IMG/VR virus record: IMGVR_UViG_3300024940_000006
Span: 1 to 35,308 of that record
Length of the DNA stretch: 35,308 nucleotides
Source of the DNA: a virus
Direction: 5' to 3' (one strand)
Below the pieces are notes generated by a model that saw only the letters and a program-made list of their open reading frames with translations, had not been told where the DNA came from and did not search any database. Below are positions 23,094 through 26,133 of this stretch, in pieces; position 1 is the stretch's first letter, and each line of letters opens with the position of its first letter. A program made the position numbers and the translations under genes.

Positions 23094-23493
23094 TGCTTGC
23101 CTTTGGTTTAGCTTGTTGCTTTTTAACCAGCGCTGCAATAATGCCGCGCATCTCGGCCGGCTTGCACCATTGCAACTTTTCACGTTTGTACATTTGCTTG
23201 GCAATGCCATCTGCATAAGGCCAGCTCAGTTGCATATCAGCCAGCAACGCGCCAATCTTGCTGATCAACGCCTGCTTGGCCTTGGCGACATCTGGCGCGG
23301 TTTGCGTATTCTTCCATCCACGCGCTTTCATGTGGTTGAGCACAGCAACGCGGCCTGCATAATCCAGCTCACGGCTACTGGTGACACGTGCCACGGTAAA
23401 CAACATGGAGCGATAGGTTTCATCATCCATACCCAGCGCTTTTTTAGCGATGTGGATCATCGCCAATTCAGAGTTTCTGATATCAGGCTTCAC
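23086..23493 (-). CDS. gemA: GemA-like regulatory protein (DUF1018, Mu gp16)
   Basis: The 135-residue product starts at a GTG (23493) with AAAGG six bases upstream, overlapping the RT stop. Family blocks are IHIAKKALGMDDETYRSML (about 13-31), ARVTSSRELDYAGRVAVLNHMKARGW, and LQWCKPAEMRGIIAALVKKQ. In Mu, GemA modulates host gene expression and DNA topology. It is normally next to mor, and here the DGR has been inserted directly before it. Confidence 0.9.
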   Translation of the reverse strand: MKPDIRNSELAMIHIAKKALGMDDETYRSMLFTVARVTSSRELDYAGRVAVLNHMKARGWKNTQTAPDVAKAKQALISKIGALLADMQLSWPYADGIAKQMYKREKLQWCKPAEMRGIIAALVKKQQAKPKASNG

Positions 23494-24853
23494 ATTTAGC
23501 CTTTCTGTATATCTTTGTTAAATCCTTGTTAACGCAGTAACCTTTGCCACGCATAACATTAGCAATAGTTGCGCGGTCTTGATGGCTACTGGATGCTTGT
23601 CCAATTAGTCCAAAGTAGCTATTTGCTACTTCAAATAACTTATCTTTCTTTGTAGCGTTAATTCGGCTTACTGCCTCATTAACAGTGCGTTTGCGTGTAT
23701 ATCTATTCCAAGGTTTAATCACTTGGCCTACAAAATCCACCCCACGATCAACAGGCTGCAGGATTGTTTTCTTTGGATTTAGCCTGGCATTTAATTTATC
23801 TTGCAAGAAAGCATTAATTTCAATCAATGCAGCATTAAGCCATTGTGGTGATTCATGCAGCAGAATGAAGTCATCTACGTAGCGCACATAATGCTTTGCA
23901 CCTATCTTGTGTTTGATAAATTGGTCTAGATCATTCAGATAGACGTTGGCAAAAAACTGTGAGCTAAGATTGCCAATTGGCAAGCCTAAATGGCTTGGTT
24001 GTTCGGCTAAACGCTTATGTTCTGGCACTAAATTCAGCTTGGTTGCTTCACCACGTAACTCATAGTTTTTGCGTGGATCGTGAAACAAGATTAAATCGGC
24101 TAGTGACAACCACCAAGGCTCATGTATCTTCTTTGCAAGCTGCTTGTGTAATACGTTCTTATCGATGGCCACAAAGAAGTTGGCTAGGTCACCCTTTAGA
24201 TAAAACGTTGGCTTGCTCCAGTTTTGAGTAGCGCTGCGTATCTTTTTTTCTAGCCTTTTTACGGCATACAGCGTGCCACGTTCGGGTATGCATGCGCAGC
24301 TGTCTGCGATAAATGATGCATAAAACCTAGGTGAAACGTGGTTATAAAATAGATGGTGGACGATGCGATCTCTAAAATCTGCAGCCCACACTTCACGTGG
24401 CTTTGGCCTCGTGATAACAAAGCAAATGCTTTTACCTGGCAAATATGTGCCAGATTTTATGTCTGTATATAAATCAAACAAATTGCGCTCTAGATTCAGT
24501 TCAAAAGCTAGAGCGCTCTCTGAGTTTCGTTTGTGTTTTCTGCAATCAAAGTACGCTTGGACTAATTCTGCAAACGTAAAGTTGTCGTTATGATCTGCGG
24601 ACAGCGCGAGCGCGGAGCTCGCTAGACTTGTTATTGTTGTTCTGGTTTCCATTATTGAAGTTCTGATACCAAGCCCAGCCTGCTGTATTTTGCTATCTAC
24701 GTCATCTTGTCGAAGGGCTGTATTTAAATCAGCACCGATCAACGAGGCAACTGCGTTAGACCTAACCTGATTCCTATCAGTGGTATCTACGATGCGCATG
24801 GCGGTGACCTTTTGAGTCAGCGGCAAAACCAGATTATTAAATCGTTCAGTCAT
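23483..24853 (-). CDS. DGR reverse transcriptase
   Basis: The product has 456 residues. RT motifs are visible: motif A GDLANFF (Asp222), LPIGNLSSQFFANVYLNDLD (291-310; the LPIGN-x2-SQ block is typical of DGR RTs), catalytic YVDD at 325-328, LNPKKT at 359, then a C-terminal thumb-like region (VNSYFGLIGQ… in part). The ATG at 24853 has AAGG seven bases upstream and follows avd by 13 bp. The template repeat encodes residues about 57-87 of the frame, so the RT core begins right after it (NFTFAELVQAYFDCRKHKR). There is no later ATG before the core except one inside the template repeat. The stop overlaps the gemA start. It copies template RNA with errors at adenines to diversify the target genes. 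Confidence 0.94.
   Translation of the reverse strand: MTERFNNLVLPLTQKVTAMRIVDTTDRNQVRSNAVASLIGADLNTALRQDDVDSKIQQAGLGIRTSIMETRTTITSLASSALALSADHNDNFTFAELVQAYFDCRKHKRNSESALAFELNLERNLFDLYTDIKSGTYLPGKSICFVITRPKPREVWAADFRDRIVHHLFYNHVSPRFYASFIADSCACIPERGTLYAVKRLEKKIRSATQNWSKPTFYLKGDLANFFVAIDKNVLHKQLAKKIHEPWWLSLADLILFHDPRKNYELRGEATKLNLVPEHKRLAEQPSHLGLPIGNLSSQFFANVYLNDLDQFIKHKIGAKHYVRYVDDFILLHESPQWLNAALIEINAFLQDKLNARLNPKKTILQPVDRGVDFVGQVIKPWNRYTRKRTVNEAVSRINATKKDKLFEVANSYFGLIGQASSSHQDRATIANVMRGKGYCVNKDLTKIYRKAKCEA
24594..24683 (-). repeat. DGR template repeat (TR), 90 bp
   Basis: Read on the minus strand in the target frame it encodes AGWAWYQNFNNGNQ and then a run of Asn, followed by KSSELRARAVRR; the Asn codons (AAC/AAT) are the mutable sites. 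The 34 bases at the low-coordinate end are identical to both variable repeats. It lies inside the RT reading frame, where it is read in another frame. In the target frame it is flanked by stop codons, so it is not itself a target gene. Confidence 0.95.
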
Positions 24854-24866
24854 AGGGCCTTAACCT

Positions 24867-25217
24867 TTATGAAACAGACGATGCGGAGCGGCGCCAACCA
24901 TTGGCTTGCTTGCCAATACTACCTGTCAACTCAATGGCCTTAGCATATTGGCCTGTTGAGATTAAACGCTTGTCGCGTGAAAGTCTTAATAGCAATTCGC
25001 ATACTTGAAGTCGCTCTATAAGCGAGATTAAATATCCTGACTTTTCACGTGAGACGTTAGCCCTAAATATCAAAGTGACAATCTCAACGCATTCATCACG
25101 TAGTTTTCCGCCTATGCTTTGTTTAAAATCACGTGGCATATTCTTGGCAAGGTCAGTGATGACATCGAGTAAATCGTATGCCACTTTGTAAATAGGTAAG
25201 GTAGTGTGATTGGCCAT
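24867..25217 (-). CDS. avd: Avd, DGR accessory variability determinant
   Basis: This 116-residue helical protein is of the four-helix-bundle (S23-like) type. It has LPIYKVAYDLLDVITDLAKNMPRDFKQSIGGKLRDECVEIVTLIFRAN, then SLIERLQVCELLLRLSRDKRLIS, and a basic C-terminus (GKQANGWRRSASS). Avd forms a pentameric basic barrel that binds the RT and template RNA and is needed for retrohoming. It lies between target 1 (13 bp) and the RT (13 bp), the classic DGR position. No clear ribosome-binding site is seen, so coupling to the upstream gene is likely. Confidence 0.92.
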   Translation of the reverse strand: MANHTTLPIYKVAYDLLDVITDLAKNMPRDFKQSIGGKLRDECVEIVTLIFRANVSREKSGYLISLIERLQVCELLLRLSRDKRLISTGQYAKAIELTGSIGKQANGWRRSASSVS

Positions 25218-25230
25218 AAAAATAAATAAA

Positions 25231-25701
25231 TTACTGAATTACTGATAATCTGCGGACAGCGCGAGCGCGGAGCTCGCTAGACTTGTTAGTGTAGTGCTGG
25301 GCCCCATTACCGAAGCCCTGAGACCAAGCCCAGCCTGCATTGTTAGCATGTGTTTCAGATGACCAATAAGCCTCTTCTTTAAACTCATCTTTCATAAATT
25401 TATAGAGCATGGCTTGCTCACATCTGTCTGGCAGATGCCCGCCAATACTTTCTGCCCAAGCGACTTGATCACTCCAGCTTGCGCGCTCACTTTCACCTGG
25501 CAACAAAATAGTATGCTCAGCTTTAAGGCCATCAGCACTAATCATGCAGCCAACCCACTTTTCGCCATCGTTAAGATCAGGCATTGATACTGAAATTGGG
25601 AATGCATTCTCAATTAACTTGCCTGATTCATACCGTGCAATCATGCTTTGCAGTTTGTTTTGCTGGCTTTTAATTTCTTCTAATGTGATTGTTTGTGACA
25701 T
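25231..25701 (-). CDS. DGR target protein 1 with C-type-lectin-like variable domain
   Basis: The product has 156 residues. An N-terminal helix (TITLEEIKSQQNKLQSMIARYESGK) is followed by a DUF1566/FGE-sulfatase-like C-lectin fold (EHTILLPGESERASWSDQVAWAESIGGHLPDRCEQAML … EEAYWSSE). The C-terminal variable repeat encodes residues 122-151 (AGWAWSQGFGNGAQHYTNKSSELRARAVRR). Compared with the template, residues 127, 129, 131, 134, 136, 137 and 138 have been changed. The final SSELRARAVRRL strand is intact. No signal peptide, lipobox or membrane helix is present. It is unlike tail fibres in size; the ligand is unknown. Confidence 0.92.
   Translation of the reverse strand: MSQTITLEEIKSQQNKLQSMIARYESGKLIENAFPISVSMPDLNDGEKWVGCMISADGLKAEHTILLPGESERASWSDQVAWAESIGGHLPDRCEQAMLYKFMKDEFKEEAYWSSETHANNAGWAWSQGFGNGAQHYTNKSSELRARAVRRLSVIQ
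25249..25338 (-). repeat. DGR variable repeat VR1, 90 bp
   Basis: It is the same length as the template repeat. By direct base comparison it has 11 substitutions, every one at a template adenine (coding strand), and none at C, G or T. The last 34 bp are identical (initiation-of-mutagenic-homing type end). The stop codon of target 1 lies just beyond. Confidence 0.95.
25261..25277. other. Hairpin GCGAGC-N5-GCTCGC in the conserved end of VR1 (also in VR2 and TR)
   Basis: A perfect 6-bp inverted repeat with a 5-nt loop lies inside the conserved 34-bp end (also at 25761-25777 and 24606-24622). Hairpins close to the variable repeat are known to assist target recognition in some DGRs. Here it is inside the repeat and not after it. 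Because it is also in the template, it cannot by itself distinguish template from target. Confidence 0.5.
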
Positions 25702-25720: not shown

Positions 25721-26089
25721 CTAAATAATTGAATGACTAAATAGGAACTCTGCGGACAGCGCGAGCGCGGAGCTCGCTAGACTCGAGATAGTGTTGTACT
25801 GGTAGCCATTAGTGAAGCCCTGAGACCAAGCCCAGCCTGCTTCTCTTTCATGCGTAGTATTTGACCAGTACCAATCTTTCTTGAATTGGCCTCTGCTTTT
25901 ATCAAACATTAAAACCTGTTCTACACGGTTTGGCAGGTCTCCGCCAAGTTGTTTTGCCCAGTCCATAGCGTCTTGCCAATTGCCATCATCTTTATCGCCT
26001 GGCAGTAAAATTGAGTGCTCACCAGTACCGTCTGGATTGATAATCGCGCCTAAATACACTTCACCTTCTTTTAACTCTGGTTGCTGCAT
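25721..26089 (-). CDS. DGR target protein 2, frameshifted inside its variable repeat
   Basis: The product is 122 residues from ATG 26089 (MQQPELKEGEVYLG), seven bases after AGGAG; an ATG two codons earlier is too close to that site. It has the same fold as target 1 (EHSILLPGDKDDGNWQDAMDWAKQLGGDLPNRVEQVLMF … DWYWSNTTHEREAGWAWSQGF) without the N-terminal helix. In the variable repeat 2 extra nucleotides after the mutable codons change the frame. The normal …SSELRARAVRR end is replaced by SSLASSALALSAEFLFSHSII. Without the 2 nt the gene would end …RRVPI at a TAG (25737-25739). The present protein probably misfolds or lacks the last strand. Confidence 0.88.
   Translation of the reverse strand: MQQPELKEGEVYLGAIINPDGTGEHSILLPGDKDDGNWQDAMDWAKQLGGDLPNRVEQVLMFDKSRGQFKKDWYWSNTTHEREAGWAWSQGFTNGYQYNTISSLASSALALSAEFLFSHSII
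25749..25840 (-). repeat. DGR variable repeat VR2, 92 bp (2-nt insertion)
   Basis: It has nine clear substitutions relative to the template, all at template adenines. Where the template has aacaag before the conserved tctagcgag, VR2 has atctcgag, 2 nt longer. The 34-bp conserved end is identical to the template and VR1. Confidence 0.93.
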
Positions 26090-26133
26090 CTTCATTCTCC
26101 TTTTAAATAATCACGGGCGTTAAAACCATCCCC

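What the first reader, a model, noticed from the sequence alone, without database searches (positions are those of the whole stretch)
25721..25840. Target 2 is switched off by a 2-nt insertion inside its variable repeat, and the DGR could repair it
VR2 is 92 bp against 90 bp in template and VR1. The extra 2 nt lie exactly among the mutable adenines (template aacaag, VR2 atctcgag). They shift the frame, so the conserved SSELRARAVRR end becomes SSLASSALALSAEFLF…. In the original frame a stop follows at once (…RRVPI, TAG 25737-25739), as in target 1, which shows the shift is secondary. The error probably arose during mutagenic reverse transcription. Because retrohoming overwrites the whole repeat, the next event would restore the frame, giving a reversible on/off state besides sequence diversity.
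Basis: partly seen in the sequence, partly recalled or inferred. Interest (0 to 1): 0.78.

Follow-up and report, generated by a model that had tools for sequence, protein, structure and literature searches.

The report
Frameshifted variable repeat in phage DGR
A phage gene that is repeatedly rewritten by an error-prone copying machine carries a 2-base slip that garbles its last residues; sister phages with the same template carry an intact copy or a different slip, so this looks like an occasional, probably repairable copying accident rather than a built-in switch.

Summary
VR2 (25749-25840, minus strand) is 92 nt against 90 nt in the template repeat and VR1. Every other difference from the template is at an adenine. 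The extra 2 nt put the conserved SSELRARAVRR end out of frame; that end and its stop are still legible in the old frame. The DGR parts look intact.

Relatives show the shifted frame is derived. Three phage lineages share a letter-identical template; their VR2 is 90 nt (in frame), 91 nt (+1, truncated) and 92 nt (+2, the window). In 382 distinct VRs of this RT clade, 16 have indels in the adenine core and 9 of these shift the frame (2.4%). Frameshifts are about 19 times denser there than just upstream of the VR, and some are in cultured isolates. This fits errors of mutagenic reverse transcription, not assembly noise or gene decay.

Repair by the next homing event is well grounded (published BPP-1 reporter assays restore targets with missing sequence) but was not observed here. 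An adaptive on/off switch is not supported: frameshifts are rare, and the 2-of-3 excess in this lineage is weak evidence. Loss of function of target 2 is likely but not shown.

The parts
25721..26095 (-). Target 2 ORF as it stands (124 aa), Lcl_C / C-type-lectin fold, C-terminus frameshifted
   Evidence: ortholog in frame is 118 aa
25749..25840 (-). VR2, 92 nt (+2 nt against TR)
25782..25794 (-). Stretch holding the 2-nt insertion (placement ambiguous), explicable as a 2-nt tandem slip plus A substitutions
25737..25754 (-). Original-frame end RRVPI and TAG stop, now out of frame
25761..25777 (-). Inverted repeat GCGAGC-TCCGC-GCTCGC in the IMH side of VR2, identical in TR and VR1
   Evidence: stem in all three; energy not exceptional against shuffles
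25231..25701 (-). Target 1 (156 aa), in frame, ends SSELRARAVRRLSVIQ
25249..25338 (-). VR1, 90 nt, 11 substitutions, all at template A
24867..25217 (-). Avd accessory protein
   Evidence: bAvd PF22296 E 2e-14; phrog_3206 'Avd protein of DGR' E 4e-33
24594..24683 (-). Template repeat (TR), 90 nt homologous core, lying inside the 5' part of the longest RT ORF
23483..24853 (-). Reverse transcriptase (longest ORF 456 aa; RT homology begins about 24580), GLPIGNLSSQ and YVDD motifs
   Evidence: RVT_1 E 1e-14; phrog_1423 reverse transcriptase E 1e-116

Best explanation
This is a two-target diversity-generating retroelement (DGR) with all its parts, in a Mu-like phage, caught with one target in a frameshifted state. 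While copying the adenine-rich template RNA, the error-prone RT slipped by 2 nt (for example re-copying CA or AC in CAACAATAACAAG) as well as misreading adenines, and the resulting cDNA replaced VR2. The protein keeps its first ~103 residues but loses the invariant RARAVRR end, so it is most likely inactive. Because the template is unchanged and the IMH side of VR2 is intact, a later homing event that copies without slipping would overwrite the insertion and restore the frame. Shown: the sequence facts, the derived state, an independent second frameshift in a sister phage, and the concentration of indels in the adenine core. Inferred: slippage as the molecular step, loss of function, and repair. 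I regard the off state as a transient by-product, not an evolved switch.
For: TR/VR comparison: 0 non-A substitutions in VR1 and VR2. Three lineages with identical TR have VR2 of 90, 91 and 92 nt. Only the 90-nt form gives the RARAVRR end; R109, A110, A112, V113 and R114 are invariant in 36 aligned target proteins. 5' part of target 2 under purifying selection: dN/dS 0.31, 0.14, 0.16 between lineages, Fisher p 0.02, 0.0002, 0.0002. Survey: 382 distinct VRs of the clade, 16 core indels, 9 frameshifting; frameshift density in the core about 19 times that of the 150 nt upstream, p 0.0002. Frameshifts also in isolate genomes (L111, L148, L181). Published: the BPP-1 DGR regenerates a truncated aph3'Ia gene on phage, prophage and plasmid (PMC3240598) and repairs a reporter lacking 18 nt; template slippage is proposed there, with in-frame indels in AAC repeats credited to Wu et al. 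2018 (PMC12875486).
Against: No raw reads, so error in this record is not excluded. Slippage is not specifically proven: 69% of random 2-nt insertions would also be explicable by a tandem slip plus A substitutions. No frame-restored descendant was seen. The structure prediction of the shifted protein keeps the same fold (pLDDT 91, last residues about 55), although such predictions are insensitive to this. L006 needs one extra non-A change besides its +1.
Confidence: 0.78

Rival explanations
1. DGR-driven phase variation: the off state of target 2 is selected or tuned, so the DGR serves as a reversible on/off switch as well as a diversifier.
For: Two of three independent lineages with the same TR have VR2 out of frame by different amounts while VR1 is in frame in all; the rest of the clade has 7 of 379, so another shifted lineage had probability about 0.04 given the window's own. 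The 5' part of target 2 stays under purifying selection.
Against: Small sample and post hoc; overall rate only 2.4%; 0 of 46 in the BPP-1 clade; no dedicated slippery feature in the TR distinguishes this lineage; ordinary error plus weak or intermittent selection on target 2 gives the same picture.
Confidence: 0.1
2. Target 2 is dispensable and on its way to becoming a pseudogene; the frameshift is ordinary decay.
For: Two of three lineages are frameshifted; dN/dS is highest between the two shifted lineages (0.31).
Against: No other lesion in either shifted copy; purifying selection on the 5' part; RRVPI-TAG kept in all three; two independent indels both fall in the adenine core; the VRs are otherwise clean.
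Confidence: 0.07
3. Assembly or sequencing artefact in a hypervariable repeat.
For: The record is a viral contig of unknown assembly quality; TR, VR1 and VR2 share long identical stretches that can break short-read assemblies (record L012 with identical RT begins inside the RT gene).
Against: The inserted context is absent from TR and VR1 and is not a homopolymer; nine clade members show frameshifts, several in isolate genomes; frameshifts are rare in adjacent non-VR target sequence.
Confidence: 0.04
4. The shifted frame is the functional form in this lineage.
For: AlphaFold still fills the last strand with the shifted tail.
Against: The other lineages read two other frames at the same place; RARAVRR is invariant or nearly so in 36 relatives.
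Confidence: 0.01

Closest known systems
BPP-1 diversity-generating retroelement (avd-TR-brt-mtd)
   Same: RT + Avd + TR, C-terminal VR in a C-type-lectin-fold protein, A-only substitutions, inverted repeat near the IMH; experimentally able to restore truncated targets (PMC3240598, PMC12875486)
   Different: Two targets, TR overlapping the longest RT ORF, inverted repeat inside the shared TR/VR stretch, different RT clade, one VR frameshifted
In-frame indels in AAC repeats of DGR VRs (Wu et al. 2018, as cited in PMC12875486)
   Same: Length change within the adenine core; slippage model
   Different: Here the change is not a multiple of three and destroys the reading frame
DGRs with inactivated RT genes (DiGReF, PMC3521204)
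   Same: Recently broken component beside clean A-only VR/TR pairs
   Different: Here the target, not the RT, is broken, and the break lies where the DGR itself can overwrite it
Slipped-strand phase variation
   Same: A small length change toggles a reading frame
   Different: No tandem repeat tract; the change comes from an RNA-templated rewrite and can be erased by the same route; no evidence of adaptive toggling

Membership tests
Diversity-generating retroelement | RT gene of the DGR type near the repeats | tested here: met
   RVT_1 and phrog_1423, (I/V/L)GxxxSQ motif as IGNLSSQ
Diversity-generating retroelement | TR-VR pair with substitutions confined to template adenines | tested here: met
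   All 11 substitutions in VR1 and all 10-12 in VR2 are at template A
Diversity-generating retroelement | Accessory Avd protein | tested here: met
   bAvd, phrog_3206
Diversity-generating retroelement | VR at the 3' end of a gene for a C-type-lectin-fold protein | tested here: met
   AlphaFold models; Foldseek best hit Lcl C-terminal domain 8q4e and many C-type lectins
Diversity-generating retroelement | Hairpin/cruciform element at the IMH | tested here: inconclusive
   6-bp inverted repeat with 5-nt loop in TR, VR1 and VR2; energy not beyond shuffles; position differs from BPP-1
Diversity-generating retroelement | RT-dependent mutagenic homing | not testable with these tools
   Needs an experiment
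Phase variation | Reversible switching of expression at high frequency | not testable with these tools
   Only snapshots are available; three frames in three lineages
Phase variation | Frameshifted states frequent in relatives | tested here: inconclusive
   2 of 3 in this lineage, 7 of 379 elsewhere in the clade

The most novel reading that the evidence does not exclude
DGRs act as reversible null switches: slippage during mutagenic reverse transcription turns individual targets of a multi-target cassette off at a useful rate, the unchanged template guarantees a way back to the on state, and in this phage lineage the off state of target 2 is favoured.
Probability: 0.1. Interest if true: 0.72.

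Novelty: new member of a known kind. Interest (0 to 1): 0.42.

Why it matters
It puts a number on a cost of DGR mutagenesis that is easy to overlook: about 2% of natural VRs in this clade (9 of 382; 95% interval 1.1-4.4%) are out of frame. DiGReF requires every non-A base to match without gaps, so such VRs can be missed or cut short. It also gives a natural case in which the template can act as a stored copy that undoes a null mutation, testable by amplicon sequencing of a single locus.

Tried and rejected
Functional alternative frame: rejected, the lineages differ in frame. Mosaic of TR and VR1: rejected, the inserted context is unique. Slip signature as proof of slippage: tried, not discriminating (69% of random 2-nt insertions also fit). 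Excess of multiples of three among core indels: 7 of 16, not distinguishable from one third. Frameshifts confined to multi-target cassettes: 9 of 9, but 308 of the 323 VRs of the first set are in such cassettes, so uninformative. Structure prediction as a test of inactivation: uninformative. Search for more members of the exact lineage: only 3 viral records with the IMH string, none in 399 genomes of one order; the record with identical RT (L012) begins inside the RT gene. Indels at alignment edges (5' flank, or the TR/VR boundary near CGCAGA) were excluded by eye as boundary differences. A first frame check by motif gave many unclear cases and was replaced by one based on the asparagine-rich TR frame. 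Wu et al. 2018 and Macadangdang et al. 2025 were not held.

Full report
What is there. The window is an IMG/VR virus record of 35,308 bases with Mu-like transposase and TniB-like ATPase genes and phage tail genes. On the minus strand, in the order of transcription, lie target 2 (25721-26095), target 1 (25231-25701), Avd (24867-25217), the template repeat (24594-24683) and the RT (23483-24853). Avd and RT are recognised by Pfam and PHROGs. Both targets match the Lcl C-terminal domain below Pfam's cut-off. Models of target 2 have a C-type-lectin fold, with the Legionella Lcl domain as best solved match. This is a complete two-target DGR.

The observation. TR and VR1 are 90 nt, VR2 is 92 nt. VR1 differs from TR at 11 positions, all adenines in TR. 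VR2 differs by 10-12 adenine substitutions (depending on where the gap is placed), no other substitution, and 2 extra nt within about 25782-25794. The ORF therefore reads ...SSLASSALALSAEFLFSHSII*, while ESSELRARAVRRVPI-TAG (stop at 25737-25739) survives in the old frame.

Relatives. Three phage lineages carry a letter-identical TR. In 3300004165/3300024948 (L004, L005; same VR2 and target 2) VR2 is 90 nt and target 2 ends SKSSELRARAVRRVPI. In 3300026272 (L006, L011, L021) VR2 is 91 nt and target 2 ends prematurely (...YYTMQV*). In the window it is 92 nt. VR1 is in frame in all three. So the shifted frame is not a conserved functional form, and two different indels arose in the same stretch. 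Across 36 aligned target proteins the RARAVRR end is among the most conserved parts (R109, A110, A112, V113 and R114 invariant). The part of target 2 before VR2 is under purifying selection (dN/dS 0.14-0.31), so target 2 is used in these lineages, and neither frameshifted copy shows further damage.

How common is it? RT-clade loci were collected from viral contigs and from GTDB genomes. TR/VR pairs were found and realigned with free substitution at template adenines. Of 382 distinct VRs, 16 have an indel inside the adenine core: nine shift the frame (window +2, L021 +1, L105 -23, L108 +4, L095 +1, L111 +1, L120 -1, L148 -1, L181 -1) and seven are plus or minus 3 (L113, L118, L151, L166, L304, L294, L331). 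None of these internal indels lies in the roughly 30-nt constant IMH side (chance about 0.0005 or less for 16 of 16); indels at the very edges of the alignments were set aside by eye. The reading frames were checked from the ORFs; in the frameshifted copies whose frames were printed the RARAVRR-type end is usually still legible in another frame. As a control, at most one of about 310 targets is interrupted in the 150 nt upstream of the VR (seven further flags there come from gaps at the 5' alignment edge); per base, frameshifts are about 19 times denser in the core (p 0.0002). Three of the frameshifted loci are isolate genomes: a Janthinobacterium (L111), a Pseudomonas (L148) and a Paraburkholderia (L181). 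Outside the clade, none of 46 VRs in BPP-1-type DGRs is frameshifted (one has an in-frame loss of 3), and one of 9 hankyphage-type VRs appears to be (L266 +1). The frameshifts are therefore tied to the DGR process and are not well explained by generic sequencing error or gene decay.

Mechanism. The simplest account is register slippage of the RT on the adenine-rich template. VR2 can be derived from TR by repeating 2 nt at any of several places in CAACAATAACAAG, with adenine substitutions only. This fits but does not prove slippage, since 69% of random 2-nt insertions would fit as well. A recent study of the reconstituted BPP-1 DGR also proposes template slippage and cites in-frame indels in AAC repeats (PMC12875486).

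Repair. Homing is copy-and-replace (PMC3240598). The insertion lies directly next to the constant IMH side, which is identical in TR, VR1 and VR2 and includes a GCGAGC/GCTCGC inverted repeat, so most homing events should overwrite it. In BPP-1 this has been demonstrated with targets lacking sequence: a truncated aph3'Ia gene was regenerated on phage, prophage and plasmid (PMC3240598), and a reporter lacking 18 nt was restored (PMC12875486). For this phage repair is an inference.

Is it a switch? The evidence favours a by-product. The rate is 2.4% (95% interval 1.1-4.4%). The lineage of the window is above this (2 of 3); given the window's own frameshift, finding another among two further lineages has probability about 0.04. 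That is suggestive at most. Whether the shifted protein is really inactive is also untested: AlphaFold gives the same fold with a poorly supported tail, which says little because such models lean on the alignment.

Known and new. Known: DGRs, their copy-and-replace repair ability, and in-frame indels in AAC runs. What I did not find in the papers searched is a count of frame-destroying VR indels in natural genomes or a case of orthologous VRs in three frames under one template. Most subscription papers, including Wu et al. 2018, were not available, so priority is uncertain. DiGReF demands an exact ungapped match at all non-A bases (PMC3521204), so such VRs can escape that survey method.

Noticed in passing
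L073:2542-2648: A DGR-made nonsense state: an AAG codon of the TR reads TAG in this VR and truncates the target at ...FQNDGH, with no indel.
   Followed up: partly
L105:4852-4934: VR with a clean 23-nt deletion spanning most of the adenine core, otherwise A-only changes; looks like a template jump of the RT.
   Followed up: partly
window 24590-24853: The TR lies inside the 5' part of the longest RT ORF and there reads SLASSALALSAD, the same frame as the shifted end of target 2; the true RT start is uncertain (RT homology begins about 24580).
   Followed up: no
L012 (IMGVR_UViG_2634166253_000001): Record with an RT 100% identical to the window over the 322 residues present; the contig begins inside the RT gene, so its VRs cannot be read.
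   Followed up: partly
L008:7504-8604 and L019:2015-3080: RT genes that look interrupted (a stop in L008, two separate match segments in L019) beside TR/VR pairs that look freshly mutated.
   Followed up: no
L266:47-167: Hankyphage-type DGR with a +1 insertion in the adenine core of its VR.
   Followed up: no
L316, L297, L309 (several VRs each): VRs carry one extra base at the very 3' edge (CAGC-AGATTC against CAGCGAGATTC or CAGGCTGATTC), probably the boundary that marks VR against TR rather than an indel.
   Followed up: no
L045:2683-2788: In-frame VR whose target frame is open for only 126 nt upstream; possibly a truncated target.
   Followed up: no
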